Assembly: GCF_001187785.1 (NCBI RefSeq)
Contig: NZ_CP012154.1
Coordinates: forward strand, 62,001-126,000
DNA: 64,000 nucleotides
Direction: 5' to 3'
DNA from: Wenzhouxiangella marina
Lineage (GTDB): Bacteria > Pseudomonadota > Gammaproteobacteria > Xanthomonadales > Wenzhouxiangellaceae
The position numbers were made by a program, and so were the translations under genes. Below are positions 1,838 through 54,457 of this stretch, in pieces. Within the stretch, counting starts at the first letter, position 1, and each line of letters begins with the position of its first letter. The notes below the pieces were generated by a model. That model ran no database searches. It was given only the letters and a program-made list of their open reading frames with translations, and was not told where the DNA came from.

Positions 1838-4246
1838 ATGCCGTGGATGCGAGTCTTTCTTGGTCTGATGCTGGGGCTGCTGGCGGGCGGTACGGTAGCC
1901 CTCGAGCAGTCGGATTTCGACACGGTGGCGTTCAAATGGAATACGGGGGAGTCCGTTTCCGACGGGCCCTTCGGCATCGAAGCCAGTCCCGCTCCCGTGC
2001 TCGATGCCGCCGTCAACTTCCAGGCTCTGGATCGCGGGGTGGATCTGGTGCTGACCGAAGGCCCGACGGGCGGCGGCATCGTCGCCTTCGGCTGGCTGGA
2101 CAGCGGTCTCTGGACGCCGGGCGATGGCGACGGCATCGACCTGATCGCCGACAACCCGGCCCACCGCGTCTACGCGACGGTATCCGACGCTGGAGCCGTG
2201 GCGATCCGTTCCGCCGCCCCCTTCAGTGCCGGCATCCAGGTCGGCAGCGCGAACGTGAGCCTGGATCCACAGGCGACCTGGCGCTTGAACGTGATGCTCG
2301 AGGTCGGGCTGGTCCAGCTCTGGTTCGATGATCAATTGCTGATCGAGGCGCCGGCCTTTCCCTCCGGCGGTGCCGATCCCGATCTGCTGGGCGATGACTA
2401 CGTCGTGTCCGTGCTGAGCGGACCGATGGAAACCGGGCAGGCCACCCTCAACGATCTGGCCCGCAATCCGAGGCTGACGGTGGAACGCTACGCGCGCGTG
2501 CTGCCCCATCGACCGACCACGCCGGTGATCATCGCCCCCCGCACCGCCGACATGATGCTGAAGGACGAGACCGTCGAACTCGGCATCTTCCTCAGATCCA
2601 GCGGTTCCTCTCCCGCGACCGGAGTCACGGCCACCCTGCTGCCGCCGCCGGGGCTGGGTCTGAGCGTCCTGTCCGGCCCGCTGTCCGTCCCGGCCATCGA
2701 GCCCGGCGCCTCGACCCTGCTGACCTACACGGTGCAATCCTCGCCGGGCACGCCGGTCGGATCGCATGCCTTCACCCTGCAGCTCAGTGGTGGGTTGTCC
2801 GATTCGATCGAGGTGGCGGTTCCCGTCTGGGACATCGACGTCACCCTGACCGATCTCCCCGGCGGCATTGCCAACGGCACGGCCGAGACCGCCTTCAACA
2901 CCTGGACCTTCGATCTGGTCGCCCCGGAGCAGTTCGATGGTGAGGGCCTGCCGTCCTGGTTCGACATCCAGGTGCTGGACTTCGAGGTCAGCCACAAGTC
3001 GCCCTTCTCCGGCACGCTCTGGGAAGAGGCCGTGCTCGAGCAGATCATGGTGCCCCGCGATGGGACGATCCGGGCCCTGTTCCTCAACGGCACCGTGCGA
3101 TCGAAGGATGCCGCCAATCAGCCCATCGTCCTGCCCGGTTCGACGGTGGCCCTGTTTCCCGTTCCGGGCAACCAACCGCGGATCGATATCGCCGATGCCC
3201 AGGGGCAGTTCGAGTTCGTCAATGTGCCCCCCGGTCTGTACCGCCTGGTCGTGCTGCCACCGCAGCCGTTCCGAAAGAACTCCGGACTGGTTCAGTCGCA
3301 GCCCTTCGAGGTCGGTACGGACAGCATGACCCTGAACGTGACCGTGCCTCGGCCGCCCCCCGAGGCCGACCCGCGCTTCATCGGCCCGCCGGCCGTGGCC
3401 CAGGGCCAGACGGGTACGGCCACCCGGCCGCCGCCCCCGCCGCCCGCGGCCCCGCCACCGCCGGCGAAGGGCGGCAGTGGTGCGCGCAGCTTCGGCGTCG
3501 GCGTCGTCGCAGGCGTGATCTTCGATCTGATCGATCTGGGCCTTGGACCCAAGACGGGCGGCGCCACCCTGGCCTCGATCCTGGCCTGCAACGTGGGTGG
3601 AGGTGCCGCCGGCTGGCTGGCCGATCCGATCGACGAGGACATCTTCTACGTCGGCCGCACCCTGACCCCGCCCCTCGATCCGGCCGAGCGGACCCTGAGC
3701 GAGCGCTTCGAGATGAACGCGCAGATCCTCACCCCGCAGCCCATCTTCGGCCCACCGGTGACGATGTCGACCTCCTCGAGCTTCGATTACACGCGGCAGA
3801 CCGACCAGCGCAGCTACCCGGTCAGCTCGGGCGAGTCACTGAGCTTCCAGCTCAAGTTGCCGACCCAGGTCAGTGCCGTCGTCGACCCGCAGGATGCGTC
3901 CCGGATGGTTGCCGCGGTCGAGGTCGAGGATCCGGGTGGTGCGCCGCTGGGCTGGCCGGACGTGCTGATGCAGGTCTGGATGTTCGAGCCCGACAACGAC
4001 ACCCTGATGGCCAGCGACTATCCTCGCGACGATGGCATCGAGCCGGATGATGTGGCCGGAGACGGCGTCTTCCACGTCCGTCTGCCCTTCGACTGCGAAA
4101 ACGGTGTCCTGCTCTACTTCGCCGGCGCGCGCAGTGGCTATTTCCCCGAGGAATGGCCGACCACCTTTGCCGTCTGGCGAGGTGATCTGGAGGCAATCGG
4201 ATTGTGCGAGGCGCCGATCTTCGAAGATCGCTTCGAGGCGCCCTGA
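1838..4246 (+). CDS. Large secreted multidomain protein ending in an F-x-D-R-F-E tail
   Basis: The 802-residue product begins with a signal peptide (MPWMRVFLGLMLGLLAGGTVA) and has a GGGGAG ribosome-binding site before 1838. Visible parts in order are: a beta-rich N-terminal region (about 25-210), a CARDB/NEW3-like Ig domain (about 230-335), a carboxypeptidase-regulatory-like fold (about 415-505, with 'G-Q-F-E-F-V-N-V-P-P-G-L-Y-R-L'), a Pro-rich hinge (about 528-545), a Gly-rich hydrophobic stretch, and a C-terminal domain. It ends in I-F-E-D-R-F-E-A-P, a tail shared with three other secreted proteins here. No enzyme motif was recognised; a surface or extracellular structural role is inferred. 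It lies alone between two short intergenic gaps. Confidence 0.65.
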   Translation: MPWMRVFLGLMLGLLAGGTVALEQSDFDTVAFKWNTGESVSDGPFGIEASPAPVLDAAVNFQALDRGVDLVLTEGPTGGGIVAFGWLDSGLWTPGDGDGIDLIADNPAHRVYATVSDAGAVAIRSAAPFSAGIQVGSANVSLDPQATWRLNVMLEVGLVQLWFDDQLLIEAPAFPSGGADPDLLGDDYVVSVLSGPMETGQATLNDLARNPRLTVERYARVLPHRPTTPVIIAPRTADMMLKDETVELGIFLRSSGSSPATGVTATLLPPPGLGLSVLSGPLSVPAIEPGASTLLTYTVQSSPGTPVGSHAFTLQLSGGLSDSIEVAVPVWDIDVTLTDLPGGIANGTAETAFNTWTFDLVAPEQFDGEGLPSWFDIQVLDFEVSHKSPFSGTLWEEAVLEQIMVPRDGTIRALFLNGTVRSKDAANQPIVLPGSTVALFPVPGNQPRIDIADAQGQFEFVNVPPGLYRLVVLPPQPFRKNSGLVQSQPFEVGTDSMTLNVTVPRPPPEADPRFIGPPAVAQGQTGTATRPPPPPPAAPPPPAKGGSGARSFGVGVVAGVIFDLIDLGLGPKTGGATLASILACNVGGGAAGWLADPIDEDIFYVGRTLTPPLDPAERTLSERFEMNAQILTPQPIFGPPVTMSTSSSFDYTRQTDQRSYPVSSGESLSFQLKLPTQVSAVVDPQDASRMVAAVEVEDPGGAPLGWPDVLMQVWMFEPDNDTLMASDYPRDDGIEPDDVAGDGVFHVRLPFDCENGVLLYFAGARSGYFPEEWPTTFAVWRGDLEAIGLCEAPIFEDRFEAP

Positions 4247-4276
4247 TCAAGGATCGGGGCGGGCGAGGGGTCGGTC

Positions 4277-4495
4277 CTAGAGGACGTACTCGTCGATCAG
4301 ATCGACCAGTTCGTCGCGGGAGATGCCGCCGTCGTGGTCGGCGTCGAACTTGTCGAAGATGCGCGAGCTGGTCTTGATGCCGTGCTCGCCGAGCAGGTAG
4401 CGGACCAGTTCGACGAACTCGCCGCGGGACAGCTCGCCGTCGCCGTTGCGGTCGAATTCCTTGAACAGTGCGTCGACCAGTTCCTCGGTGTTCAT
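4277..4495 (-). CDS. Two-EF-hand calcium-binding protein
   Basis: This 72-residue acidic protein has two canonical EF-hand loops, D-R-N-G-D-G-E-L-S-R-G-E near residue 15 and D-A-D-H-D-G-G-I-S-R-D-E near residue 50. Each is flanked by amphipathic helices (VDALFKEF and SSRIFDKF before the loops). Acidic residues at loop positions 1, 3, 5 and 12 predict Ca2+ binding. No signal peptide is present, so it is a small cytoplasmic calmodulin-like sensor or buffer. An upstream GGAGGGTGGACCC gives a plausible ribosome-binding site. It lies convergent to the preceding large secreted protein and on the same strand as the ABC exporter upstream. Confidence 0.85.
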   Translation of the reverse strand: MNTEELVDALFKEFDRNGDGELSRGEFVELVRYLLGEHGIKTSSRIFDKFDADHDGGISRDELVDLIDEYVL

Positions 4496-4584
4496 GGGTC
4501 CACCCTCCTGCGGGTTGTGTCTGTGTCCTCGGCTCTGCGCGAATCATGCCGCAAAGGCGGGCCGGCCTCAACCGGCCCGGCGGT

Positions 4585-5364
4585 TCAACTCTTCAATCGA
4601 AAGCCCGAGCGGATGATCCAGGCGATGATGCCAAGGCCGACGAGCACGAAGCCGCCCAGCGCCGTGAGGCTGACCCAGATACTGACGTCGCCGGTGCCGA
4701 AGAACACGAAGCGGAAGCCGGAGATGATGTAGACGATCGGATTGAACAGGCTGATGGTCTGCCACAGCTCGGGCAGCATCTCGATCGAGTAGAACACGCC
4801 ACCGAGGAAGGTCAGGGGCGTGACCACGAGCATCGGCACGAACTGCAGGGACTCGAAGCCGTCGGCCAGCACGCCGATGATGAAGCCGGCCAGGCTGAAG
4901 GCGAAGGCCACCAGCAGCAGATAGGCCAGCATGCCGATCGGGTGGGCGATGGACAGATCGATGAACAGGCTGGCGGTAGCCAGGATGATCAGGCCGAGCA
5001 ACACGGACTTGGTCGCGGCGGCGCCGACGTAGGCGAGCACCAGTTCCAGCGTCGAGACCGGCGCCGAGAGGATCTCGTAGATCGTGCCCGTGAAGCGCGG
5101 CATGTAGATCCCGAAGCTGGCGTTGTTAAGGCTTTCCGTGAACACGGTCAGCAGGATCAGCCCTGGCACGATGAAGGCCGCGTACTGCACGCCGTCGATG
5201 TCGCCGATGCGGCTGCCGATGGCCGAGCCGAAGACGACGAAGTAGAGCACCGTGGTCAGCACCGGCGTGGCCACGGACTGCCAGAGGGTTCGCTTGAAGC
5301 GCGCCATCTCGAAGCGGTAGATCGCCAGGGCACCGCGGGCGTTGAAGGCGGGGACTGCACTCAT
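4585..5364 (-). CDS. ABC-2 type transporter permease (YadH-like)
   Basis: The open frame extends further upstream, but the ATG at 5364 overlaps the stop of the ATPase gene (ATGA) and gives the usual size of 259 residues. The product has six predicted membrane segments and the family-typical '[19 protein letters not shown]' cytoplasmic stretch. A late '[11 protein letters not shown]' loop resembles E. coli YadH. It should form the membrane channel of an ABC exporter with the ATP-binding protein translated just before it. Substrate is unknown; related systems are annotated for drugs or polysaccharide. Confidence 0.85.
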
Positions 5365-6308
5365 GGTTCGCGCACCAGGTCGACGAAGATTTCTTCCAGG
5401 GAGCTCTGCCTTGTATCCAGATCGCTCAGCTCGATGCCGGCCTCGTGCACTCGCCGGATCAGGCCAGGCAGGCGAAGCTCGCTGTCCTCGGGGTGGAAAC
5501 TGTAGCGGATGGACCGCCCCCCGTTGACCAGCTCCAGATCCCAGCCAGCCAGGGACTCGGGCAGTTGCTCGAGGGCCTGGGTCAGGTGCAGGGTCAGGCG
5601 CTTCTGACCGAGGCGGCGCATCAGGGCCTGGGTCTCGTCGACCACGATCAGCTCGCCCTTGTTGATCACCCCGACCCGATCGGCCATCTGCTCGGCCTCC
5701 TCGATGTAGTGGGTGGTCAGCACGATGGTGACACCGGACTGGCGCAGGCGGCCGATCAGCTCCCACATGCCCCGGCGCAATTCCACGTCCACGCCGGCGG
5801 TGGGTTCGTCGAGGAACAGCAGTTCCGGTTCATGGGCCAGGGCCTTGGCGATCAGCACGCGTCGCTTCATGCCCCCGGACAGGGTCATCAGGCGGTCGTT
5901 GCGCTTGTCCCAGAGCGACAGGTCCTTCAGCAGGGACTCGATATGCGCCTCGTTCGGCGGCAGGCCGAACAGGCCGCGGCTGAAGCGCACCGTGTCGAGC
6001 ACGGTCTCGAACATGTCGATGTGCAGCTCCTGCGGCACCAGGCCGATCAGGCGCCGCGTGTGGCGGAACTCGCTGAGAATGTCGCGGCCGGCCACGCGGA
6101 TCGAGCCGCTGCTCGGTGTCACCAGGCCGCAGATGATGCTGATCAGGGTCGTCTTGCCGGCGCCATTGGGTCCCAGCAGGGCGAACATCTCGCCCCGACG
6201 GATGTCCAGGCTGATTTCCCCGAGCGCGCGAAAGCCGCCCGCGTAGACCTTGCCGACGCGGTCGATGCTCAGGATGGCCTCATTGGCCGCCGCTTTCGAT
6301 TCGCTCAT
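5361..6308 (-). CDS. ABC transporter ATP-binding protein (YadG-like)
   Basis: The 315-residue product has a complete ABC nucleotide-binding domain: Walker A G46-P-N-G-A-G-K-T53, Q-loop Q93, signature L143-S-G-G-M, Walker B L163-L-F-L-D-E-P169, and the switch H200. A C-terminal extension of about 90 residues follows, as in YadG and other ABC-2 exporters. The ATG at 6308 is chosen; a GTG two codons earlier (6314) is possible and neither has a strong ribosome-binding site. The stop overlaps the permease start by 4 bp, so the two subunits are translationally coupled and form one exporter. Confidence 0.9.
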
Positions 6309-6344
6309 GGGCACAGCATAGCGGCCCCGTGGGCGCTTCGGGGC

Positions 6345-6974: not shown

Positions 6975-6997
6975 GTGGTTCTCCTCGGCGGTAGGGG

Positions 6998-7615: not shown

Positions 7616-7715
7616 GGCGGGCGGTCCCCGGCGGTGGAAGAATGCCCAGCATACTCTTTGGTATCGTTTCGGGCCGGTAAAATGAAAGGCGAATCGAACC
7701 CCGGAATCGCCGCCC

Positions 7716-9292: not shown

Positions 9293-9427
9293 TCACCGCA
9301 ATACACTGCGGCTGCGACATTTCTTGACACTCCTTGACTTGCACCGGTCGCTGGCCCGGGGCTAGGGTGAAGCGTCGATCGCCGGCGGGAGCGCGCGATC
9401 GGCTCGGTTCCCCAGAGGAGAGCTCGT

Positions 9428-17626: not shown

Positions 17627-18029
17627 CCCCGGATTCTATCGTGCCATGCAGACAGACGCGCATGGCAGGCTCAGGGGAAGCAGGATGCGCGCGCCAAGCG
17701 GCCGATCAATGCAGGACCCTTTCAATCGCATCCGTGATGCCGCCGCCATAGGGCCGGGTCATGACCTTCGGGCACTCCATCGCAGGCGGTCTCGCCGCAG
17801 CCTCGCAGGCGGCTGTACCGGTCCAGTTGCTCGTCGCTCAGCAGCGGCAAGGTCTCGAGGTGCGCGTGGGGATGGACGTAGCGTAGCTCGCTTGACCGGC
17901 GTCCTCTGTTGGCGAACCGTCCCCCTCTCCTTGACCGATTTCCCGCCCGAATGCCGCTAGACATGGCTAAGGAAGCGGCCGATTCAGACCTTCGAGCCGC
18001 ATTGCTTGACTCTGAAGGAGATGAAAACG
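17627..18029. other. Intergenic region with a possible gene remnant, 403 bp
   Basis: The region lies between the leftward secreted protein and the rightward gene at 18030. Apart from the possible remnant described at 17722-17890 and the ribosome-binding site AAGGAG at 18015-18020, nothing clear was seen. Confidence 0.4.
17722..17890 (-). pseudogene. Possible 3' remnant of a His-rich periplasmic (Spy/CpxP-like) gene
   Basis: In one frame the last 54 codons read 'L-R-Y-V-H-P-H-A-H-L-E-T-L-P-L-L-S-D-E-Q-L-D-R-Y-S-R-L-R-G' and end in a His/Asp-rich tail. The 'L-S-D-E-Q-L-D-R-Y-S-R-L-R-G' pattern resembles the C-terminal helix of LTxxQ/Spy-type proteins. Upstream codons become Arg/Gly-rich junk with no signal peptide, so if real it is a truncated remnant. 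Confidence is low. Confidence 0.25.
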
Positions 18030-18560
18030 ATGTTGCGTTGGAGTGGTCTGCTCTTTGTTTCGATGATTGGATGGCTTGGCGCGGCTCAGGCGGAGACCGT
18101 GACCATGTCCTTCGGCGGCCTGACGTCGGGAGTGACGGTCTACGAGGAGAATCAACTCCGGCTCGTCAGCAACGCCGCGATGTTCGTCAGCGGCACCTCA
18201 CTGCCGGATCCACCGGGCTTGCTCCCGAGCAGCTTGGGCATGCAGTTCACGCTGACCGCGCTGCACGGCGGCACCTTCGACATGATCAGTATCGACATCC
18301 GCGAGCTGAATGAAAGTCTGGGCCCGCAGTCCCTGAGCTTCATCGGCACGCGTGAGGACAACAGTACCGTTCAGGTCTCGATCAACACCGACGGGGTCTG
18401 TTGTCAGGCCGGCGACAATTTCGGCGTGGAGACCTTCGATCTGTCCGCGATGACGGGTCTGGTCTCCCTCCAGTGGTTCAGTAGCCTGGTCTCCTACGAC
18501 GACATCGTCGCCACGCTGATCCCTCCTGACGCCGTGTTCGAGGACCGCTTCGAGTTCTGA
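18030..18560 (+). CDS. Secreted beta-rich protein ending in an F-x-D-R-F-E tail
   Basis: The ATG at 18030 is chosen because AAGGAG (18015-18020) sits at proper spacing; an ATG at 18021 is too close. The 176-residue product has a signal peptide ('L-R-W-S-G-L-L-F-V-S-M-I-G-W-L-G-A-A-Q-A'). Its compact beta-sandwich-like domain holds 'F-T-L-T-A-L-H-G-G-T-F-D-M-I-S-I-D-I' and 'G-V-E-T-F-D-L-S', resembling PEP-CTERM-style 'NF038126-like' secreted domains. Only the fold type is suggested, not a function. The C terminus is A-V-F-E-D-R-F-E-F, matching the tail on three other secreted proteins here. It is convergent with the TonB receptor. Confidence 0.7.
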   Translation: MLRWSGLLFVSMIGWLGAAQAETVTMSFGGLTSGVTVYEENQLRLVSNAAMFVSGTSLPDPPGLLPSSLGMQFTLTALHGGTFDMISIDIRELNESLGPQSLSFIGTREDNSTVQVSINTDGVCCQAGDNFGVETFDLSAMTGLVSLQWFSSLVSYDDIVATLIPPDAVFEDRFEF

Positions 18561-24651: not shown

Positions 24652-27600
24652 TCAGTTTCCGCCCGAGTAGCGGTTGTCTCCCGGATACGAGGCCGTGCCC
24701 GGCAGCGACCAGCTGTAGGTGTCGGAGATGTAGTCCGGAATGAAGCGGACCTTGCGCCAGACCGCATCCGATTCGCCGGTCAGTTCGTCATCCTGCCCCC
24801 AGACGCCATACAACCAGGAGCCATCCGGGCTTGCCTCGAGGCTGGCTTCTCCCGAAGCTAGACCCTGGGCGCCTTCGAAGGGATCGAATTCGTTGCAGAA
24901 GCCGGAGCCCGGGACCGCCGCCAGGTAGTTGGCCGGCAGCGAGGTTACATCGTGGAGATCGTTTGGATAACAGTTCTCCAGGCCTGCGTTCGGGTCGCTC
25001 GAGCCCGTATCTTCCGCCCAGACCGTGTAATGATCGCCGAAGCGGATGCCGCGGCCGTAGAACAGATCCAGCGGTTCGGCTTCGCCTTCCTCGACCGTGG
25101 AGTTGTCTCCGGTCTCGTAGACGATGAAGTACCGCGAGGCGTCGCGGATGTCGGCCGGATCGGTGCTACCGACGATCGTGTTCGGTGTCGGCGAGTAGCG
25201 TGGATCGAGGATCGTGAACTGCTGCGACTTCAGCTGTGATACGTTGCGAGCCTGTTCCGGCGCGCCGGCCCCGTAGCCGTAGCAGCCCACCGGTTCATCG
25301 GAGGTGCCACCGCCCTGGCCACGGAAGATCTCGCAGTGCACGGTGCCTTGCGCCATGTCGCCGTAGCTGATGCCCTGACGATCCGTGTAATCCGCCGGCA
25401 ACGTGGTCCAGGTCAAGCCACCATCGAAGGATCGGCGGATGTAGAGCTGGTAGCGGTCCTGACCGCGGGAGTTCAGCTTCCAGTTCGGCGCCCAGGCGTA
25501 GAGCATCATCACGAAGTCGCCGTCCAGGAAGCCACGGTGGCCCTTGGCGACGTCGAGCGGGTTGTACCAGCTCTGATCGGTCAGGTTGTTCGTGCGGTTG
25601 GTGAGCGAGTCTTCGCAGGTGAAGCTCGCATCCGGGTCGCTGAGCCCGTCGAAGCCCGCCGCGCTGACCGCGGTGCCGCCGGTCATGCCCGGCTGGCACT
25701 GGTGCCAGGTCAGCACCTTGGTCGTGTTGGGCTCGGGTATGTCGGAGCCTTCCAGGATCGGGTTGGTGTCGCCGATGCCGGTGACCGGATCGACGGTCGG
25801 GCAGGCCGTGCTGCCGAGGGTCGAGGTGTCGAAGCAGACGTCCGGCGTGACCGAGGACAGATTGATCGCCGGATCGAGACAGAGGCCATCGGGATAGAAG
25901 GGGTTGGAGCCGTCCGCATAGGCCCAGGTGTCGCAGGCCATGTTCGTGAAGGCATATGGGTTCTTGACGCCGTTCGTCGTGTCATCGAAATCGGCCGGCA
26001 ACAGGATCCGGCGGGCCATCACGTCGGCGGGTCCACCCTGCTGCATGGCGCCCTGCTTCCATGTCGGGAAGGCGACCAGGCCCAGAGTTTCGGGTGCGGC
26101 GCCTGCCAGCCGAACGGTGGACTCGAAACGGTCGGCGAAGATCAGGTCGCTGAGCGCCGTGGTGGCGACCTTCGCGAAGGGCTGCGCAAGCAGGCTGCCG
26201 CGACGGGCGATCTCGGTGCGGTAGATGTCGAAGTTGCCCGTGTCGAAGTCCCACAGGGACCCGGTGCTGACCGGAGCGAACATCGTGCCCGTCTCCCAGT
26301 CGATCTCGGGCTGGTTCAGCATGTTGCCGTGGCTGCCAAGGTTCTCGATCAGCTGCGCCGATTCCTCGACGCTGGTATCGCTCAGCGCCATGCTGAAGCT
26401 GTGGTACCACATGTTCTTGCCGATATCGAAGGTCTCGCAGTTCGCGTCCACTTCCGGATCGCAGCCCACGATGCCGGTCTCGGTGTCCACACCGAACTGG
26501 CCCAGGCCCTTGCTTTCTTCGGCAACGAGCACGACCCAACCGCTGTCGGTGATGTCGTCGTCGTTGGAATCGAAGCCATACAGTCCGACGCGCGGACGGG
26601 TCGAGGCGGTATTGCCGACCAGGGGCAGGCCGTCTTCGGTCACGCAGACGTTGGTCTGGACGCGTTCCTGGCCGATCCGCACGGTGGCGTTGGCGATCTG
26701 GGCGCACATGTCCCGCATGCCGTAGTCACCGACCGGATCCGGCAGTCCCGGATTGTTCGCCACCAGGGCCGAGCCGTTGCAGTAGGGGGCCGGGTTGTCG
26801 ACGTTGCAGGGGGCGTTGTCTGTCAGGCGCATCGGCATGGCGAAGGGAATGCCCGGCTTTGGTCGGTTCGATTCACCGGTGTAGGCGGCGTACTCGACGA
26901 TGGTCCCGTCGTCCTGCTGCACTTCGTCGAAGTATTCCCATTCGATGTAGGAGTACCAGACGTCGGTCTGGGAGTTCGCGACCGCGCCGCTCCAGCCCTC
27001 ACCCGGGCCTTCGCCCTGGCCGGCGCGCAGGCCTTCCGGGTCCTCCTGCCAGGTGATCACGGCACCCGCGCCCTCGACCATGGCCACTTCGACGCGGTTG
27101 ACGTCGCGGCGGCCGGAGGTCAGACGCTCGGCCTTGCGCCAGATCATGTCGTAGGTGCCGTCGTCCATCAGCTCCAGCGAGCCGCGTGCAGTCCACAGAC
27201 AGCTGAAGGGCACTTCACCGACGGGATGGTTCTGTTCGAACTGATCCTGCGCATAGTCCACCGAACCCTGCGAGCCGGCGACCAGGAACATGTCGATCAG
27301 GTAGAGGTCATCGGGTGACGGCGTGTTCAGATCGATGCCCATGTAGGCGGCGATCGCGTCGCGGCGGGTCGGATCACTGCTCTCGAGCGTGTAGTTGGGC
27401 TCACCGCCATCGCAGTAGCGGCTGAACCAGGCGACCAGGGCCTGATTGCCGGCCGTGGCCTGGAAGATATTGATGACGTCACCGGGGTAGTTGATGCCGT
27501 CGTCGGCATAGAGAGCGACATCCGGGCGGTCGAAGTCGGCCGAGCTGAGGTCGGAGGATTCTGACAGGTCCGTGCGCTTCCAGGTCAGGCCGTCATCCAG

Positions 27601-28035
27601 GGTCACGGCCGCGTAGGCCTCGCGCTTGCCGTGGCCGGCAAAGCCGATGCCTTCGAGGGTCACGGGATACTCGACATCGCCGTAGACGAACACGCCAATC
27701 TGCGGTCTCGCCTCGGAGTAGACGTCGACCTGGTCGCCGTCGATGTTGTAGCGCGGAACGTCGGTCACCAGGGTGCCGTCGGCGCGCTGGGCCGGGATGT
27801 AGGACCGCATGACGTCGATGAAGGCGTGCGATGCCTCGCCACCTGGCGTCAGATTGTCGGTCATCATGCGCTCGAAGCGCGATCCCGGCACCCCGTTCGG
27901 GCCGGCGCCATCATCGGCCAGGGCCGGCCCGCCGGCCAGCAGGGCGATGGCCAGGCCGGAAGCCAGGCTGTTTCGAATGAAATTGGATTTCGGCCCCCGA
28001 TCAGGCGCGACCGAATGTACAGTCCGTGTACGCAT
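24652..28035 (-). CDS. 1127-residue secreted protein (choice-of-anchor O-like)
   Basis: The ATG at 28035 is certain by an AGGAGGG site and a following signal peptide (S-L-A-S-G-L-A-I-A-L-L-A-G-G-P-A-L-A-D). The mature protein is acidic and rich in aromatic and Asn/Asp residues, with many exposed-loop features and repeated S-F-D-G-G-L-T-W / L-D-D-G-L-T-W segments like BNR/sialidase Asp-box turns. The N-terminal 'S-R-F-E-R-M-M-T-D-N' and overall plan recall the family NCBI names choice-of-anchor O, from memory only. The sequence L-I-F-A-D-R-F-E-S lies internally (about residue 632). No transmembrane anchor is visible at its C terminus. It has its own terminator and a divergent promoter region. 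Function unknown. Confidence 0.7.
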   Translation of the reverse strand: MRTRTVHSVAPDRGPKSNFIRNSLASGLAIALLAGGPALADDGAGPNGVPGSRFERMMTDNLTPGGEASHAFIDVMRSYIPAQRADGTLVTDVPRYNIDGDQVDVYSEARPQIGVFVYGDVEYPVTLEGIGFAGHGKREAYAAVTLDDGLTWKRTDLSESSDLSSADFDRPDVALYADDGINYPGDVINIFQATAGNQALVAWFSRYCDGGEPNYTLESSDPTRRDAIAAYMGIDLNTPSPDDLYLIDMFLVAGSQGSVDYAQDQFEQNHPVGEVPFSCLWTARGSLELMDDGTYDMIWRKAERLTSGRRDVNRVEVAMVEGAGAVITWQEDPEGLRAGQGEGPGEGWSGAVANSQTDVWYSYIEWEYFDEVQQDDGTIVEYAAYTGESNRPKPGIPFAMPMRLTDNAPCNVDNPAPYCNGSALVANNPGLPDPVGDYGMRDMCAQIANATVRIGQERVQTNVCVTEDGLPLVGNTASTRPRVGLYGFDSNDDDITDSGWVVLVAEESKGLGQFGVDTETGIVGCDPEVDANCETFDIGKNMWYHSFSMALSDTSVEESAQLIENLGSHGNMLNQPEIDWETGTMFAPVSTGSLWDFDTGNFDIYRTEIARRGSLLAQPFAKVATTALSDLIFADRFESTVRLAGAAPETLGLVAFPTWKQGAMQQGGPADVMARRILLPADFDDTTNGVKNPYAFTNMACDTWAYADGSNPFYPDGLCLDPAINLSSVTPDVCFDTSTLGSTACPTVDPVTGIGDTNPILEGSDIPEPNTTKVLTWHQCQPGMTGGTAVSAAGFDGLSDPDASFTCEDSLTNRTNNLTDQSWYNPLDVAKGHRGFLDGDFVMMLYAWAPNWKLNSRGQDRYQLYIRRSFDGGLTWTTLPADYTDRQGISYGDMAQGTVHCEIFRGQGGGTSDEPVGCYGYGAGAPEQARNVSQLKSQQFTILDPRYSPTPNTIVGSTDPADIRDASRYFIVYETGDNSTVEEGEAEPLDLFYGRGIRFGDHYTVWAEDTGSSDPNAGLENCYPNDLHDVTSLPANYLAAVPGSGFCNEFDPFEGAQGLASGEASLEASPDGSWLYGVWGQDDELTGESDAVWRKVRFIPDYISDTYSWSLPGTASYPGDNRYSGGN

Positions 28036-28342
28036 AGACCCTCCTAGAAGAATGGTGTCGATTTCCTCGAAATCGGTGTCCTCCGGAGGGGCTTCGTACC
28101 CGAAACCGTGCCAGCAGACGCCGTCCGATACTCGCAGTAGTACGATTCGGGGCCCTGACAACAAACTCTGAAAACCCCGAATTCACGCTAGCATCATCAA
28201 TGCTTATTAGCAATCACTTGTTGAGCAGGATCAAATTTAGGGAAATTCGATAACCTGCCTCCCCCCGCAGCGCTTGCAAGCGGTCGTGGTCGCTGCCTAT
28301 GCTGCATCGATCCGGTTACGAAACCGCTACAGGCAGAAGTCC
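28036..28342. other. Divergent intergenic region, 307 bp
   Basis: The gap separates the leftward 1127-residue protein from the rightward amidohydrolase. The stretch at about 28165-28260 is clearly richer in A and T than the surroundings and is the likely site of both promoters. No -10/-35 pair was convincing. No RNA gene was seen. Confidence 0.45.
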
Positions 28343-30455: not shown

Positions 30456-33194
30456 ATGACATTGATTCGAACGATTCTCCCCGCCGCCCTCCTCCTGGCG
30501 GTTACCGCTGGCTGGGCCCAGATCGACCCGGCGCTGAGCCAGGCCCTTGAAGGCTCGGAGCGCGTCCCGGTGATCGTGGCGATCGAGGATACCGGGGGGA
30601 GCACCGAGCTGAACCGCCGCCTCCAGCCCGAGGCCATGGCCGCGCGCCTGGCGCGCCAGGACGCGATCATCGAGCGCGCGCTGAACCGGCCGATTGCCGA
30701 GCTCGAGACCGCGTCGGCGACGGAATCGCGGCTACGCCGCCGCTTCCGGAGCGTGCCGTTGGTGTCGATGCTTCTGAACGGCGCGGAAATTTCCGCACTG
30801 CTCGCCGATCCTGCCGTGACCTCGATCGTGCTCGATGACCTCGTGGCTCCGGCGAGCGATGGCACCATGCCCCTGATCGGGGCCAGCGCCTTGCACAGCG
30901 CCGGTCTGACCGGTGCGGGCGTGAGCACCGCCATCCTCGATACCGGGGTCGATCATGAACACCCGATGTTTGCCGGTCGCATCATCGAATCGGTCTGCTT
31001 CTCGAGCAATGTGGATGAACAATCCATCAGTCTGTGCCCCGGGGCGGCAGAAGAAGACCTCACCACCCCGGATGCGGGCGATGACTGCGCCTATTCAGGT
31101 GATTCGACGACGCCGATCGGCGGCTGTGGCCATGGCACGCACGTGGCCGGCATTGCGGCGGGTGCTGCCTTCGTCGATCCGGTGGGCGGTGCGACCCTGA
31201 TCGGCGTCGCGCCATCGGCGGGCATCGTGGCCGTTCAGGTCTTCTCCCGTTTCGACAGCCTGTGCGCCGGCTTCGGCCTTTCGACCCCATGCGCCCTGTC
31301 CTACACGAGTGATCAGATCGCGGCCCTGGATTGGCTGCTGATCAACCGTGCCAGCCTGAGTCTGGCCTCCGCCAACATGAGTCTCGGCGGTGGACAGTAC
31401 ACGGGCTACTGCAACACCGACCCGCGCTTCGGCGTCATCAGCAACCTCCGTGACCTGGGCGTGGCCACTGCCATCGCCTCCGGCAACAGTGGCTTCAACA
31501 ATGCCGTGGGTGCACCCGGTTGCATCGAGCCCGCCATCACCGTCGGGGCCACGAACGATTCGGACGTGGTGGCCAGCTTCTCGAACTCGGCGACCATGAT
31601 CGATCTGCTGGCGCCGGGCGTGGCGATCAATTCCGCCGAGCCGACGATCGACGATACCCTGCCCGGCCGTGCGCGATCGATCAGTGGGACCTCGATGGCG
31701 ACGCCGCATGTGGCCGGGGCCATCGCGCTGCTGAAGTCTGCCCACCCCAACGCATCCGTGGACCAGATCGAGGCGGCGCTGGCATCGACCGGTGTGCCCG
31801 TGACCGAATCGCCTTCAGGTCTGGTTCGGCCCCGGATCCGCGTTGACCTGGCGCATGCCGTCATCGATGCGACCCCCCCGGGGGTGGAATCCATTCTTCG
31901 TCTGTCACCGTCGAACGAATTCACCAACGTCGCGAGCGTTACCTGGCGGGTTCGCTTCACGGAAGTCGTCGAGAACGTGACGGCCGATGATTTTCTGGTG
32001 TCGGGCACGACGGGCACGGTCAGCATCGGTCAGCTGAGCGCCCAGGAAGCGGACGTGACCGTGTCCGGGGGTGACATGGCCAGCGTCGATGGTGTCGTGT
32101 CGCTCGGCTTCGCGGTCGGGCAGGACATCCAGGATCCGGCAGGCAACCCCCTCGACGACACCACGCCCATCGGCGCGAATCAGTCCTATACGCTCGACCA
32201 CACGGCGCCGATCCTGAACGGCTTCGTGCGCTTCTCTCCGAGTGATGAACAGACCGATGCCGACGTGCTCGTCTTCGAGCTCTCCTTCAGCGAGGCGGTC
32301 ACCAGCATCTCGATCGACGATTTCGACATCGTCGGGACGACTGCGGTGGGCAGCTTCATGCCCGTCAACGCCAGCACCTATCAGATCACGCTCTCCGGGG
32401 GTGACCTGGCTGATCTGAACGGCACCGTTGGCCTGAACCTGTCCTTCAGCCAGGACGTCCGCGATACCGTCGGCAACTTCCTGGGCACGGTGGAGCCGGC
32501 CATCGACGAGACCTATTCGATCGTCAATGGAGCGACCGTCGGGGGTGCCGTGACGGGGCTGGTAGGCACCGGCCTGAGGCTTCAGAACAACGGCGGCGAC
32601 GATCTGCTCGTCAGCGGCGATGGTCCCTTCGTTTTCGGCTCGGTCGTTCCCTTCGGCGATAGCTACGAGGTCACCGTGGCCACCGATCCGAGCGAGCCAG
32701 CGCAGCGCTGTGAAGTGACGAACGAGTCCGGGCAGGCCGGGATGACACCGATCGATAACGTTCAGGTCGACTGCCGGACGATCATCGATCTTTCGATCAG
32801 CATCAGTAGCGATGCAGCCGTTCTCGAGCCCGGTGCCGGGCTGAGCTATGTGATCACGGTCATCAATCAGGGGCCGGTGGCCGTCAGCAGTGCGCGCGTC
32901 ACCAATCTGCTCCCCGCCGAACTGGTGGATGCGTCCTGGGTCTGCATGCCTTCGGCAGGGTCGGTCTGTGCGATGGATGGATTCGGATCCATCGATGAAC
33001 TGGTCGACCTTCAGCCCGGTGGACAGGTCACGTTCCTGCTCAGCGCCGTCGCGGCGGTGGGCGAGCAGCATGTGCTGTTCAATGTGGCCGAGGTCTCGGC
33101 CCCGGGCGATGTGCTCGAGGACGAGGTGTCCAACAACAGCGCCAGCGACCGGCTGGCCACCGACAGTGCCTTCGATGATCGCTTCGAGCCCTGA
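30456..33194 (+). CDS. Secreted subtilisin-like (S8) protease with Ig-like and DUF11 domains
   Basis: The 912-residue product has a signal peptide ('L-I-R-T-I-L-P-A-A-L-L-L-A-V-T-A-G-W-A'), an N-terminal propeptide, and a complete S8 triad. D162 lies in I-L-D-T-G-V-D, H226 in G-H-G-T-H, S413 in S-G-T-S-M-A-T-P-H, and the oxyanion Asn in A-S-G-N-S-G. Two repeats of about 95 residues follow ('F-S-E-A-V-T-S-I-S-I-D-D-F', about 485-680), resembling the Ig-like bacterial SwmB/Big domain. A DUF11-type domain ('I-T-V-I-N-Q-G-P-V-A-V') precedes the tail. The C terminus is A-F-D-D-R-F-E-P, the shared tail. The protease probably acts outside the cell; its target is unknown. Confidence 0.9.
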   Translation: MTLIRTILPAALLLAVTAGWAQIDPALSQALEGSERVPVIVAIEDTGGSTELNRRLQPEAMAARLARQDAIIERALNRPIAELETASATESRLRRRFRSVPLVSMLLNGAEISALLADPAVTSIVLDDLVAPASDGTMPLIGASALHSAGLTGAGVSTAILDTGVDHEHPMFAGRIIESVCFSSNVDEQSISLCPGAAEEDLTTPDAGDDCAYSGDSTTPIGGCGHGTHVAGIAAGAAFVDPVGGATLIGVAPSAGIVAVQVFSRFDSLCAGFGLSTPCALSYTSDQIAALDWLLINRASLSLASANMSLGGGQYTGYCNTDPRFGVISNLRDLGVATAIASGNSGFNNAVGAPGCIEPAITVGATNDSDVVASFSNSATMIDLLAPGVAINSAEPTIDDTLPGRARSISGTSMATPHVAGAIALLKSAHPNASVDQIEAALASTGVPVTESPSGLVRPRIRVDLAHAVIDATPPGVESILRLSPSNEFTNVASVTWRVRFTEVVENVTADDFLVSGTTGTVSIGQLSAQEADVTVSGGDMASVDGVVSLGFAVGQDIQDPAGNPLDDTTPIGANQSYTLDHTAPILNGFVRFSPSDEQTDADVLVFELSFSEAVTSISIDDFDIVGTTAVGSFMPVNASTYQITLSGGDLADLNGTVGLNLSFSQDVRDTVGNFLGTVEPAIDETYSIVNGATVGGAVTGLVGTGLRLQNNGGDDLLVSGDGPFVFGSVVPFGDSYEVTVATDPSEPAQRCEVTNESGQAGMTPIDNVQVDCRTIIDLSISISSDAAVLEPGAGLSYVITVINQGPVAVSSARVTNLLPAELVDASWVCMPSAGSVCAMDGFGSIDELVDLQPGGQVTFLLSAVAAVGEQHVLFNVAEVSAPGDVLEDEVSNNSASDRLATDSAFDDRFEP

Positions 33195-49127: not shown

Positions 49128-49157
49128 TCGATCACCCGCCAGCGAGCACACGCTCGA

Positions 49158-49188
49158 GGCCCGGTCGCACAAGCGGCCGGGCCTTTTT
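49158..49188 (+). terminator. Intrinsic terminator of the second subtilase gene
   Basis: A 7-bp stem (GGCCCGG at 49158-49164 with CCGGGCC at 49177-49183) with a 12-nt loop is followed by five T. It lies 30 bp after the stop at 49127. Confidence 0.82.
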
Positions 49189-49248
49189 ACGTTTTGCCCA
49201 CTGCGTACCGGATAGCGTGAGGCCACATCACTTTCGCGAAGCTCGACG

Positions 49249-50490: not shown

Positions 50491-50497
50491 GGGACGG

Positions 50498-50845
50498 ATG
50501 GCTCGGGAACTTACGGTCTATTTCGATGGCGCCTGCCCCCTATGCCAACGGGAAATTGCCCTGATGCGTCGCCTCGACCGTCGCCGTCGAATCGCCTTCA
50601 TTGACGTCAGTCGTCCGGACGCGAGCTGTCCCATCGACCGCGAAGCGCTGCTGGCCCGCTTCCATGCCCGTGAGGGTGAAGTCATGCACGATGGCGCTGC
50701 GGCCTTTGCCGCCATGTGGCGACAGATCCCCTTGCTGCGTCCCCTGGGTCTGCTGGCGAAGCACCGCTGGATGCTCGCCGTACTGGAATGGACTTACCTG
50801 CGTTTTCTGACGATTCGCCCCCGACTCCAGCGCTTGTTCGATTGA
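50498..50845 (+). CDS. DCC-family thiol-disulfide oxidoreductase-like protein (DUF393)
   Basis: The 115-residue product opens with 'V-Y-F-D-G-A-C-P-L-C-Q-R-E-I', the D-G-x-C-P-x-C hallmark of the DCC family. Conserved 'I-A-F-I-D-V' and 'A-A-F-A-A-M-W-R' segments follow. The C-x-x-C suggests a redox role, but family function is not proved. The ATG at 50498 has a GAGGGACGG site; an upstream GTG overlaps the photolyase stop. Coupling with a photolyase-like gene is a common arrangement for this family. Cytoplasmic. Confidence 0.88.
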   Translation: MARELTVYFDGACPLCQREIALMRRLDRRRRIAFIDVSRPDASCPIDREALLARFHAREGEVMHDGAAAFAAMWRQIPLLRPLGLLAKHRWMLAVLEWTYLRFLTIRPRLQRLFD

Positions 50846-51004
50846 TCCTGAGCGCTTCCGAAACGACCCATCATCTGGATTGATTCACGTCAAGTCCGAC
50901 CCCCGAAGGAGCTACTAATCTTCGGATTCGCTCATGCTCAGCCTGGGGGCCCGGGACCACTCCTGGTCTCGCAGCCGAACTCGGTTCAAGAGAGGGTGCT
51001 TTCG

Positions 51005-54000
51005 ATGCAACGTTCTGTGTTTGTCGCCTTTCTAGGCCTGCTTCTGACCTTCCATGGCGAAGCCTTCGGCCAGACCCCCATCGGTGGAACACTTGCAGGC
51101 GATACCAACTATGCGGCAGGGACCTATCATCTGGTCTCCGATCTGATTGTGCCGAATGGCGTCACGTTGACGCTGTCACCAGCTGCCATCATCAAGAGCG
51201 ATCCGGGGCGGCGGATCATCGTTGATGGCGCGCTGGCGGCGACGGGAAATGCAGTCGACCCCATCGTCTTCACGGAAGCGCGCGACGACAGCGTCGGGCT
51301 CCCGATCACGCCTGGTCCACCGGCACCGGGGACCTGGAACGGCATCGAAGTGCGCGCCGGCGGCAGTGCGGTGCTGGAGCACGCCCGCATCCGCTACACG
51401 GGCAACTCGAGCTTTCTGAACTGGGGCATCCGCAAGGACGGCGCCGGTAGCCTGACGATCAGCCAGTCCGAGATCACCCTCGGCTCTCGCCAGGGCCTGG
51501 TCGTGACCGGCAGCGGCGGAGTGGTCTCGGTCAGCAACACGCTGATCGACAGCAACGGACAGACCGGCGTCTACGTGGAGGACTCCAACGCCACCCTCAG
51601 CCTGGTCGACAACCAGATCACGGCCAACGGGAACGGTCTGCAGTTCGGTCAGTTCGTCGGCTTCTCGGGCGCGCTGACCATGACCGGGAACCAGGTCACC
51701 GGCAACAGCCTCTCGGGTCTGTATGTGACGGTTCTGCCGATCGCCGGCGGTATCAGCGGCAACACCTTCAGCGGCAACGACCAGAACCTGGCGCCGATCC
51801 GCCTTGCCCCCAACGCGTCGGGCACGGTCATCGACGCCAGTAACGTCCTCGATGGACCGATTCGGGTCGATGGCGGCAACCTCGCGGCCGGTCTGACCAG
51901 CTGGAGCAGTCCGTTCACCTATCGCCTGACCGGCGAGGTCGCGGTGCCGGCCGGCGCGACCCTGACCCTGCCGCCGGGCACGGTGGTCAAGGCCGATGTG
52001 GGATCGAGGCGCCTGATCGTGGATGGCGACCTGAGCGCGATCGGCACCGGTGTCCAACCGATTGTCCTGACCGAGATCCGTGACGACACGGCCGGCGGCG
52101 ACAGCGGCTTTGCCGGCGATCCCGCCCCCGGAGCCTGGAACGGCATCGAAGTCCGGGACGGCGGCAGCGCGGTGCTGGAGCATGCCCGCATCCGCTACAC
52201 GGGCAACTCGAGCTTTCTGAACTGGGGCATCCGCAAGGACGGCGCCGGCAGCCTGACGATCAGCCAGTCCGAGATCACCCTCGGCTCTCGCCAGGGCCTG
52301 GTCGTGACCGGCAGCGGCGGAGTGGTCTCGGTCAGCAACACGCTGATCGACAGCAACGGACAGACCGGCGTCTACGTGGAGGACTCCAACGCCACCCTCA
52401 GCCTGGTCGACAACCAGATCACGGCCAACGGGAACGGTCTGCAGTTCGGTCAGTTCGTCGGCTTCTCGGGCGCGCTGACCATGACCGGTAACCAGGTCAC
52501 CGGCAACAGCCTCTCGGGTCTGTATGTGACGGTTCTGCCGATCGCCGGCGGTATCAGCGGCAACACCTTCAGCGGCAACGACCAGAACCTGGCGCCGATC
52601 CGCCTTGCCCCCAACGCGTCGGGCACGGTCATCGACGCCAGTAACGTCCTCGATGGACCGATTCGGGTCGATGGCGGCAACCTCGCGGCCGGTCTGACCA
52701 GCTGGAGCAGTCCGTTCACCTATCGCCTGACCGGCGAGGTCGCGGTGCCGGCCGGCGCGACCCTGACCCTGCCGCCGGGCACGGTGGTCAAGGCCGATGT
52801 GGGATCGAGGCGCCTGATCGTGGATGGCGACCTGAGCGCGATCGGCACCGGTGTCCAACCGATTGTCCTGACCGAGATCCGTGACGACACGGCCGGCGGC
52901 GACAGCGGCTTTGCCGGCGATCCCGCCCCCGGAGCCTGGAACGGCATCGAAGTCCGGGACGGCGGCAGCGCGGTGCTGGAGCATGCCCGCATCCGCTACA
53001 CGGGCAACTCGAGCTTTCTGAACTGGGGCATCCGCAAGGACGGCGCCGGCAGCCTGACGATCAGCCAGTCCGAGATCACCCTCGGCTCTCGCCAGGGCCT
53101 GGTCGTGACCGGCAGCGGCGGAGTGGTCTCGGTCAGCAACACGCTGATCGACAGCAACGGACAGACCGGCGTCTACGTGGAGGACTCCAACGCCACCCTC
53201 AGCCTGGTCGACAACCAGATCACGGCCAACGGGAACGGTCTGCAGTTCGGTCAGTTCGTCGGCTTCTCGGGCGCGCTGACCATGACCGGTAACCAGGTCA
53301 CCGGCAACAGCCTCTCGGGTCTGTATGTGACGGTTCTGCCGATCGCCGGCGGTATCAGCGGCAACACCTTCAGCGGCAACGACCAGAACCTGGCGCCGAT
53401 CCGCCTTGCCCCCAACGCGTCGGGCACGGTCATCGACGCCAGTAACGTCCTCGATGGACCGATTCGGGTCGATGGCGGCAACCTCGCGGCCGGTCTGACC
53501 AGCTGGAGCAGTCCGTTCACCTATCGCCTGACCGGCGAGGTCGCGGTGCCGGCCGGCGCGACCCTGACCCTGCCGCCGGGCACGGTGGTCAAGGCCGATG
53601 TGGGGGGCCGATCGCTGACCGTGCTGGGTCTGCTCGAGGCCGTGGGCACTTCGGCTGAGCCTGTGGTGTTCACCGAGATTCGCGATGACACGGTCGGGGG
53701 CGACAGCGGCTTCCCCGGCGATCCCGCTCCCGGAGCCTGGAACGGCATCGATATCCGCGACGGCGGCAGCGCAGTGCTTGAGCAGGCGCGCATCCGCTAC
53801 ACCGGACAATCGACTTTCCTGACCTGGGCCATCCGCAAGTTCGGCAGCGGTGATCTCGTGCTCCTCGATACCTACATTGCGTTCGGGTCGCGAGACGGGG
53901 TCGTCATCGATGGTGCCGGTGGCAGCCTGCTGCTGCAGGGCAATCGCATCGAGGGCATGGGTGGCAACGGCATGATCATCCGCAACGCCGCCGCTTCGAT

Positions 54001-54457
54001 TCAGATCCTGTCGAACCGGATTCTCGACAATCTCGGCAACGGGGTACTCATCGAGGAGGCCTCACCACTCATTCAGAACAGTCGACTGGCCAGGAACGCA
54101 CAGGCCGGGGTCCGGGTGAGCGGTGCTTCCAGTGCGCCGACCCTGACGGCCAACTGGATCAGCGGCAACAACGTGGGCGTTGACAGCTACAGCGGTGCGA
54201 ACCCGCTGATCGGTGGCAGCGAGGGCAGTGGCAACGACCTCGTCGACAACACGCTGTTCGGTGTCCGCAACAACGACTCGGGTCTGGTCATCGATGCGCG
54301 CTTCAACTGGTGGGGGCATCCCTCCGGGCCCCAGGACCCGATCGGGAACCCGACGGGCCTGGGCGATGCGGTCAGCGAATGGGTGGATTACAGCGATTTT
54401 CTGGATCGCTCCGCTGTCGACGGGCTGTTCAGCGATCGCTTCCTTTCGCAGCCCTGA
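51005..54457 (+). CDS. Secreted beta-helix repeat protein with three near-identical 267-residue units
   Basis: The ATG at 51005 is set by an AGAGAGGG site and gives 1150 residues with a signal peptide ('S-V-F-V-A-F-L-G-L-L-L-T-F-H-G-E-A-F-G-Q'). The body is right-handed beta-helix-like (repeating N-x-[IL]-x-x-N-G, 'G-V-Y-V', 'G-L-Y-V' turns, as in NosD/pectate-lyase folds). Three copies of a 267-residue unit are almost identical; a fourth, diverged unit follows. It ends in G-L-F-S-D-R-F-L-S-Q-P, a variant of the shared tail. No catalytic motif was recognised; a surface adhesin or glycan-binding role is inferred. Copy number probably varies between strains. Confidence 0.75.
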   Translation: MQRSVFVAFLGLLLTFHGEAFGQTPIGGTLAGDTNYAAGTYHLVSDLIVPNGVTLTLSPAAIIKSDPGRRIIVDGALAATGNAVDPIVFTEARDDSVGLPITPGPPAPGTWNGIEVRAGGSAVLEHARIRYTGNSSFLNWGIRKDGAGSLTISQSEITLGSRQGLVVTGSGGVVSVSNTLIDSNGQTGVYVEDSNATLSLVDNQITANGNGLQFGQFVGFSGALTMTGNQVTGNSLSGLYVTVLPIAGGISGNTFSGNDQNLAPIRLAPNASGTVIDASNVLDGPIRVDGGNLAAGLTSWSSPFTYRLTGEVAVPAGATLTLPPGTVVKADVGSRRLIVDGDLSAIGTGVQPIVLTEIRDDTAGGDSGFAGDPAPGAWNGIEVRDGGSAVLEHARIRYTGNSSFLNWGIRKDGAGSLTISQSEITLGSRQGLVVTGSGGVVSVSNTLIDSNGQTGVYVEDSNATLSLVDNQITANGNGLQFGQFVGFSGALTMTGNQVTGNSLSGLYVTVLPIAGGISGNTFSGNDQNLAPIRLAPNASGTVIDASNVLDGPIRVDGGNLAAGLTSWSSPFTYRLTGEVAVPAGATLTLPPGTVVKADVGSRRLIVDGDLSAIGTGVQPIVLTEIRDDTAGGDSGFAGDPAPGAWNGIEVRDGGSAVLEHARIRYTGNSSFLNWGIRKDGAGSLTISQSEITLGSRQGLVVTGSGGVVSVSNTLIDSNGQTGVYVEDSNATLSLVDNQITANGNGLQFGQFVGFSGALTMTGNQVTGNSLSGLYVTVLPIAGGISGNTFSGNDQNLAPIRLAPNASGTVIDASNVLDGPIRVDGGNLAAGLTSWSSPFTYRLTGEVAVPAGATLTLPPGTVVKADVGGRSLTVLGLLEAVGTSAEPVVFTEIRDDTVGGDSGFPGDPAPGAWNGIDIRDGGSAVLEQARIRYTGQSTFLTWAIRKFGSGDLVLLDTYIAFGSRDGVVIDGAGGSLLLQGNRIEGMGGNGMIIRNAAASIQILSNRILDNLGNGVLIEEASPLIQNSRLARNAQAGVRVSGASSAPTLTANWISGNNVGVDSYSGANPLIGGSEGSGNDLVDNTLFGVRNNDSGLVIDARFNWWGHPSGPQDPIGNPTGLGDAVSEWVDYSDFLDRSAVDGLFSDRFLSQP
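51331..53602 (+). repeat. 801-bp direct tandem coding repeat, 2.8 copies
   Basis: Identical landmarks recur at exactly 801-bp spacing: the GGCCGATGTG junction ends at 52000, 52801 and 53602. Copies 2 and 3 differ by few or no bases; copy 1 differs by only a handful of silent or near-silent changes. The unit is 267 codons, so copy number changes keep the frame. Beyond 53602 the fourth unit has diverged, mostly at the nucleotide level. Confidence 0.93.

What the first reader, a model, noticed from the sequence alone, without database searches (positions are those of the whole stretch)
4211..54457. Shared C-terminal F-x-D-R-F-E tail on four unrelated secreted proteins
Four proteins with signal peptides but different domains end in almost the same tail: I-F-E-D-R-F-E-A-P (4211-4246), V-F-E-D-R-F-E-F (18531-18560), A-F-D-D-R-F-E-P (33168-33194) and L-F-S-D-R-F-L-S-Q-P (54425-54457). 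The rest of the proteins are unrelated, so shared ancestry of the whole gene does not explain it. A terminal position in each case suggests a sorting, processing or secretion signal. I recall similar F-x-D-G-F-E tails in extracellular proteins of Xanthomonadales-like bacteria but know of no described cognate enzyme.
Basis: partly seen in the sequence, partly recalled or inferred. Interest (0 to 1): 0.72.

Follow-up and report, generated by a model that had tools for sequence, protein, structure and literature searches.

The report
Shared address tag on secreted proteins
This bacterium ends dozens of otherwise unrelated exported proteins with the same very short sequence, F-x-D-R-F-E, in the place where other bacteria put known surface-sorting signals, and what reads it is unknown.

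Summary
The own genome (probably Wenzhouxiangella marina, inferred) holds 103 matches to F-x-D-N/G-type-F-(E/D) DNA against 5 for the reversed pattern. Of 100 examined, 79 lie at a C terminus; 65 of those 79 proteins have a crude signal peptide. 75 of them fall into 45 unrelated clusters, and codons vary, so selection acts on protein. The tag is patchy by genus within one order and near background in the rest of the class. Tagged proteins match families named 'choice-of-anchor' or 'myxosortase/rhombosortase-dependent'; some homologs elsewhere carry transmembrane-type sorting tails there. The fourth residue is R in 77 of 79 own tails but mostly G in a sister genus, suggesting one shared reader. 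The tag has no transmembrane helix. The genome lacks exosortase and a rhombosortase above cut-off; its one sortase lies in what looks like a dedicated locus. A few copies sit at the mature N terminus or between domains, favouring a tag that is bound rather than cleaved.

The parts
1838..4246 (+). secreted protein (NPCBM-associated / CarboxypepD_reg-like and choice-of-anchor X matches, all below the curated cut-offs) with tag FEDRFE-AP at 4220-4243
18021..18560 (+). 179-aa secreted protein without a Pfam or NCBIfam match, tag FEDRFE-F at 18537-18557
30456..33194 (+). secreted subtilase (S8) with DUF11 domain, tag FDDRFE-P at 33171-33191
51005..54457 (+). secreted right-handed beta-helix protein, variant tag FSDRFL-SQP at 54428-54454
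26122..26139 (-). internal copy (DLI-FADRFE) inside a choice-of-anchor O protein (24652-28164, minus strand); may be chance or an inserted tag
   Evidence: uncertain

Best explanation
The tail is a short linear address tag, consensus D-x-(I/L/V)-F-x-D-(R or G)-F-(E/D) followed by 0-14 residues, on exported proteins of one lineage. Shown: it recurs at the C terminus of dozens of unrelated signal-peptide proteins, stands where some homologs carry transmembrane-type sorting tails, and its fourth residue has changed together across the proteome. Inferred: after Sec export and folding, the tag is recognised by one common envelope component and directs the protein to the outside, most likely keeping it at the cell surface. 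[quoted passage not shown] Because the tag also occurs behind the signal peptide or between domains, recognition is more likely binding than C-terminal transpeptidation, provided those copies work.
For: 103 vs 5 matches; 79 of 100 at the C terminus; 65 of 79 with crude signal peptide, 48/64 vs 124/531, OR 9.8; 45 clusters among 75 proteins; choice_anch_Q in 14 of 68 tagged proteins plus choice_anch_D/J/B, M36, ExeM-GG families, while none of the 25 commonest families in 64 untagged signal-peptide proteins is of that kind (TonB receptors, dipeptidyl peptidase, TolB, beta-lactamase-like); among 80 homologs located with a tag-free query, 9 end in the tag and 10 in TM+basic tails, 8 of the 10 within 37-43 residues of the domain; two of the 10 are Wenzhouxiangella; R in 77/79 own tails versus G in 104 of 129 listed matches in three genomes of a sister genus (for G006 43 of its 51 matches were listed); gspD above cut-off in 41 of 47 genomes. 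In Wenzhouxiangella AB-CW3 no proteolytic activity was excreted and its authors assume outer-membrane-anchored proteases (PMC7691419, section 19 read).
Against: No reader found. Genomes without the tag also have gspD above cut-off (G041, G207, G316), so T2SS does not track the tag. No localisation data for any tagged protein. 21 of 100 matches are not C-terminal: most look like chance or wrong frames, some are real secreted proteins. The signal-peptide rule was crude. 47 of 80 choice_anch_Q homologs end in neither kind of tail and 13 run off the locus.
Confidence: 0.6

Rival explanations
1. Cleavage/transpeptidation signal: an unknown periplasmic or outer-membrane enzyme cuts at or before the tag and joins the protein to a surface molecule, as sortase-like systems or the type IX sortase do.
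For: C-terminal in 79 of 100; sits where sortase-type tails sit; a PF04203 sortase is commoner in tag-rich genomes, 11 of 20 versus 1 of 12 (Fisher p 0.011).
Against: No membrane helix to hold the substrate; exosortase absent in the own genome; no rhombosortase above cut-off in 20 tag-rich genomes; 9 of 20 tag-rich genomes lack sortase, and in the own genome the sortase lies next to a protein with a TM-type tail and a two-component pair, like the dedicated marine sortase systems (that name is recalled). N-terminal, interdomain and tandem copies.
Confidence: 0.2
2. Export signal for the type II secretion system that simply selects proteins for release into the medium, with no anchoring.
For: Signal peptides plus extracellular-type enzymes; gspD above cut-off in 41 of 47 genomes; position tolerance.
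Against: G041, G207 and G316 have gspD above cut-off but no tags above background; no linear T2SS signal is known (recalled); no excreted protease activity in AB-CW3 (PMC7691419).
Confidence: 0.12
3. Stability or folding cap: the tail protects exported proteins from periplasmic tail-specific proteases or closes an exposed edge.
For: Terminal position; acidic end.
Against: Far more sequence-specific than such caps need; found on many folds and also N-terminally; other exported proteins of the same genome do without it.
Confidence: 0.05
4. DNA repeat or paralogy artefact: a mobile or repeated DNA element, or one gene family, spread the 3' ends.
For: Two paralogous clusters of 17 and 14 exist.
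Against: 67 distinct 18-mers in 79 tails, codons close to the tagged genes' usage, upstream 60 nt 33% identical on average, 42 singletons.
Confidence: 0.01

Closest known systems
PEP-CTERM / IPTL-CTERM with exosortase
   Same: Many-to-one C-terminal tag on unrelated signal-peptide proteins; patchy; TM+basic tails of this look are found on the same choice_anch_Q proteins, even in Wenzhouxiangella.
   Different: No membrane helix, no basic end; no exosortase in the own genome.
GlyGly-CTERM with rhombosortase
   Same: Shared client families (ExeM, M36 peptidase); up to thirteen members per genome in PMC3237569 (passages seen).
   Different: No tripartite architecture; 79 C-terminal copies read in the own genome; no rhombosortase above cut-off.
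MYXO-CTERM with myxosortase (T2SS-dependent surface display)
   Same: Dozens of clients per genome, T2SS route proposed there; one internal copy also reported (PMC11980579, abstract and passages seen).
   Different: No invariant cysteine, no TM helix, no Arg cluster.
Type IX secretion C-terminal domain
   Same: Soluble C-terminal sorting signal without TM helix (recalled).
   Different: About 80-residue Ig-like domain (recalled) versus about 9 residues here; machinery not tested.

Membership tests
PEP-CTERM/exosortase | motif + transmembrane helix + basic C terminus | tested here: not met
   0-14 residues follow the motif, no hydrophobic stretch
PEP-CTERM/exosortase | exosortase (PF09721) in the genome | tested here: not met
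   0 matches in the own genome; 23 of 47 panel genomes have one
GlyGly-CTERM/rhombosortase | rhombosortase (TIGR03902) over cut-off | tested here: not met
   0 of 20 tag-rich and 2 of 12 tag-poor genomes over cut-off; weak general rhomboid-type matches in all 32
LPXTG/sortase | LPXTG-like motif + TM + basic tail, sortase co-occurring | tested here: not met
   motif and TM absent; sortase in 11 of 20 tag-rich and 1 of 12 tag-poor genomes, own copy beside a TM-tailed protein
MYXO-CTERM/myxosortase | invariant Cys, TM helix, Arg-rich end | tested here: not met
   no conserved Cys, no helix in 79 tails; myxosortase gene itself not searched
Type IX secretion CTD | folded ~80-aa C-terminal domain | tested here: not met
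   shared region is about 9 residues; no tail model among NCBIfam hits of nine 40-aa C-terminal pieces and one whole tagged protein
Type IX secretion CTD | T9SS core genes | not tested
   no search made
generic many-to-one sorting tag | same terminal motif on unrelated exported proteins | tested here: met
generic many-to-one sorting tag | patchy, nearly all-or-none distribution across genomes | tested here: met
   within family f3, nine g325 genomes hold 31-148 matches and the genera other than g10, g296, g325, g333 hold 0-5
generic many-to-one sorting tag | cognate reader whose presence tracks the tag | tested here: inconclusive
   exosortase, rhombosortase, sortase, gspD tested and none tracks strictly

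The most novel reading that the evidence does not exclude
A sorting system of a new kind: a soluble, about nine-residue, position-tolerant tag without membrane anchor, with up to roughly 150 pattern matches per genome (not all read) in several lineages of one gammaproteobacterial order, read by one unknown envelope receptor that co-evolves with the tag (whole-proteome switch between D-G-F-E and D-R-F-E) and that can replace exosortase-type anchoring. A bolder, untested form: the tag resembles the first strand of a jelly-roll domain (IFADGFETGDTSAW in locus L212; the fold is recalled, with no supporting Pfam match and no PDB sequence match) and might bind by donating a beta strand.
Probability: 0.45. 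Interest if true: 0.88.

Novelty: new variant of a known kind. Interest (0 to 1): 0.76.

Why it matters
C-terminal sorting tags that I know of in Gram-negative bacteria use a membrane helix (PEP-, GlyGly-, MYXO-CTERM) or a folded domain (type IX). A tiny soluble tag used on a large part of the exported proteome would mean an undescribed way of sending or holding proteins at the cell surface, in a group with proteolytic, facultatively predatory members (PMC7691419).

Tried and rejected
Reader search by known families: exosortase, gspD, rhombosortase, sortase: none tracks the tag strictly. Tags per Mb are higher in exosortase-negative family members: p 0.059 for 25 genomes at least 90% complete (medians 12.6 vs 8.1), 0.019 for those at least 80% complete, 0.035 for all 43; relatedness not corrected, so not used as proof. 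Lipobox among signal-peptide proteins: 3/48 tagged vs 16/124 untagged, not significant. Neighbour-gene clustering across 12 tag-carrying genomes (11 others plus own) gave 9 groups in three or more genomes: tagged families, an ECF sigma / Ser-Thr kinase pair and genes of general type. G291 looked enriched (43 vs 6), but its five examined loci do not look like tails of secreted genes (one is 13 residues from a stop, the others in very short frames or inside genes) and it has no match to the stop-adjacent pattern; dropped as background. G403 and G209, slightly high, likewise gave no convincing tails in five loci each. Search for the longer jelly-roll-like form in loci held by then: none; later seen in L212. 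For the two L212 proteins no Pfam match apart from one E 0.25 hit outside the domain, and no PDB sequence match for the one tried. No NCBIfam model of the tail among the hits. Print: no held paper contains IFADGFE, LFADGFE, FADGFESG, IFSDRFE, DGFE-CTERM or FxDGFE; two searches found no paper; some searches gave listings in which I saw no description of such a tail. Structure prediction never ran.
Full report
What is there. The four tails are in the sequence as described: in the window 9 strings of the form F-x-(D/E)-(R/G/S)-F occur in six frames and only these four lie near the end of an ORF. The proteins differ: one with sub-cut-off NPCBM, CarboxypepD_reg and choice-of-anchor X matches, a 179-residue protein without family, a subtilase with DUF11, and a right-handed beta-helix protein.

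Genome scale. The pattern TTYNNNGAYNGNTTYGA has 103 matches in the own genome and 5 for the reversed control; a version that frees the last residue but fixes D-R/S-F after a hydrophobic-type codon has 113 versus 5 (not read one by one). Of the 103, 100 were listed and all 100 were read: in 79 the F lies within 20 residues of the stop. In these 79 the fourth residue, left free to be R, G, S, C or W by the pattern, is R in 77 and S in 2; position -1 is I, L or V in 74; position -3 is D in 45. A crude signal-peptide rule is met by 65 of 79. By reading the other 14, several are cut or fragmentary frames, some have plausible signal peptides the rule missed, and at least one, with S at position four, looks like a cytoplasmic chance match. 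In 595 called genes from the window and the fetched stretches, 48 of 64 tagged and 124 of 531 untagged genes meet a similar rule (odds ratio 9.8, p 5e-16), and 61 of 69 motifs lie in the last 20 residues. Shuffling the last 30 residues of the genes gives on average 0.02 tags against 61 observed. The stretches were chosen for the motif, so the comparison is between genes inside them.

Not ancestry, not DNA. Without their last part, the 75 of 79 tagged proteins that have at least 100 residues form 45 BLAST clusters, 42 of them singletons, the two large ones having 17 and 14 members. The 79 tags are written in 67 different 18-mers with codon choice close to that of the tagged genes, and the 60 bases before them are on average 33% identical between genes. 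Selection is on the peptide.

Where it sits. NCBIfam hits of 68 of these 75 proteins (five of more than 1250 residues and two doubtful ones left out beforehand) are dominated by families whose name records that members carry different anchors: choice_anch_Q 14, choice_anch_D 3, NxxGxxAF 2, choice_anch_J 2, choice_anch_B 1, together with myxosortase-dependent M36 (3), rhombosortase-dependent M36 (2), ExeM-GG (2), rhombotarget A (3, weak) and a MYXO-CTERM family (1). Only 25 of 35 families are shown and one protein may match several. As control I took untagged proteins from the same stretches that meet the rule, have 200 residues or more and no further predicted membrane segment (68, of which 4 with an internal or N-terminal motif were dropped). 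The 64 gave dipeptidyl peptidase, TolB, AmpH, beta-lactamase-like and TonB-receptor families; no choice-of-anchor family is among the 25 commonest of 483, each with 4 members, so a family with fewer members would not show. So the tag marks outward-bound proteins rather than periplasmic enzymes or barrels.

Exchange with known tails. A genome-collection scan with five choice_anch_Q domains, tag removed, returned the best 80 of 304 relatives. 9 end in the tag directly after the domain (six titled Wenzhouxiangella, one Gammaproteobacteria bacterium, one Rhodanobacteraceae UBA703 and one Pseudomonadota MAG, the last two with D-G-F-D). 11 were scored as TM plus basic tails, of which I discard L133 (a Pro/Thr-rich end), leaving 10: eight end 37-43 residues after the domain, two (L136, L173) after 453 and 364 further residues. 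L194 (direct) and L173 are titled Wenzhouxiangella. 47 have other endings and 13 run off the locus. The same domain in the same genus thus carries either a TM-type tail or the soluble tag.

Distribution. All 43 genomes of the family have matches, 1469 in total against 126 reversed, median 34 against 2, though a few small genomes such as G041 are at background. In 398 genomes of the order the narrower pattern is nearly all-or-none by genus: f184, f185, f186 and f192 are rich (10 or more in every genome), f190 mostly (but G425, G463, G527 and G546 have 0-2), f187, f188 and f191 moderate (17; 11 and 11; 9), f189 mostly at background with exceptions such as G534 (26) and G462 (19); in f3 the genera g325 (nine genomes, 31-148), g296 (five, 30-69), g10 (five, 15-41) and g333 (one, 33) are rich and the others 0-5; in f2 only G485 (65), G600 (52) and G734 (14) stand out. 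C-terminal placement was checked by reading in the own genome, in five loci each of G006 (4 terminal), G013 (3, one in a frame cut by the contig end) and G409 (3), and in 11 further genomes (46 terminal tags, beside several non-terminal matches), not in the other f2 and f3 genera. In 369 genomes of the class, the stop-adjacent form occurs 3 times in the own genome, twice in G409 and once in each of 5 others, while the reversed control gives single hits in 6 genomes. In this sample the tag is a feature of one order. The own family is Wenzhouxiangellaceae by the titles; size, GC and one contig fit W. marina in PMC7691419 (passages).

One reader. In the own genome the fourth residue is R in 77 of 79 tags and never G; in three genomes of sister genus g2 it is G in 38/47, 35/39 and 31/43 matches (terminal or not; for the third genome 43 of 51 matches were listed), and in 11 genomes of other families G in 40 of 46 terminal tags. 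Dozens of unrelated proteins sharing a lineage-specific residue is best explained by one trans-acting partner.

Which reader. Exosortase is absent in the own genome and present in 23 of 47 panel genomes. Rhombosortase above cut-off occurs in none of 20 tag-rich and 2 of 12 tag-poor genomes. Sortase occurs in 11 of 20 and 1 of 12, an association (p 0.011) but not a strict one: G500, G644 and G697 carry 89-119 matches and no sortase. The own sortase lies beside a large protein with a TM-type tail and a response regulator/kinase pair, which I recognise from memory as the dedicated marine sortase arrangement. GspD above cut-off occurs in 41 of 47 genomes, among them the tag-negative G041, G207 and G316; weaker matches in the other 6 may be other secretins. 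Type II secretion may be the route but cannot be the specific reader.

Binding or cutting. Against a pure C-terminal cleavage signal stand copies directly behind a signal peptide (own L068; L211, L212, L216), between domains (L229 between a P domain and FG-GAP repeats; own L088 ahead of DUF11 and Big_1), and tandem copies (own locus L022; L228). They are few, and an internal MYXO-CTERM copy is also on record (PMC11980579, passage), so this is a leaning and not proof. For retention at the surface the only support is that AB-CW3 excretes no proteolytic activity and its authors assume outer-membrane-anchored proteases (PMC7691419, section 19), and that tagged families elsewhere use surface-anchoring tails.

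Verdict. A real, strongly selected, lineage-specific sorting tag of unknown reader. It works like the PEP-, GlyGly- and MYXO-CTERM tags but fails their defining features, so it is not filed under any of them.

Noticed in passing
L212:8765-10966 (genome G418): Two nearby secreted proteins start, behind the signal peptide, with a tag copy and then IFADGFETGDTSAW / LFADDFETGDTSAW, as if the tag equalled the first strand of the domain that follows; no Pfam family found for that domain.
   Followed up: partly
window 51005-54457: The beta-helix protein holds several near-identical repeats of a few hundred residues (read), suggesting recent internal duplication.
   Followed up: no
L058, L241, L243; kinases near tags also in L061, L063, L081: ECF sigma factor and Ser/Thr kinase genes recur near tagged genes in several genomes; possibly a regulatory cassette. 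Not tested against the genome-wide number of kinases.
   Followed up: partly
L048:6639-11281 (own genome): Two similar proteins carry the tag followed by a further 87 residues that resemble each other, unlike the tagged proteins that end there.
   Followed up: no
L066:5696-6451 (own genome): A small secreted segment ending in the tag is fused to a stretch with CxxCH-like cytochrome motifs (weak Pfam matches); gene fusion or frame problem.
   Followed up: no
L259-L266: Sortase loci from eight genomes; several show a response regulator/kinase pair and one large TM-tailed protein beside the sortase.
   Followed up: partly
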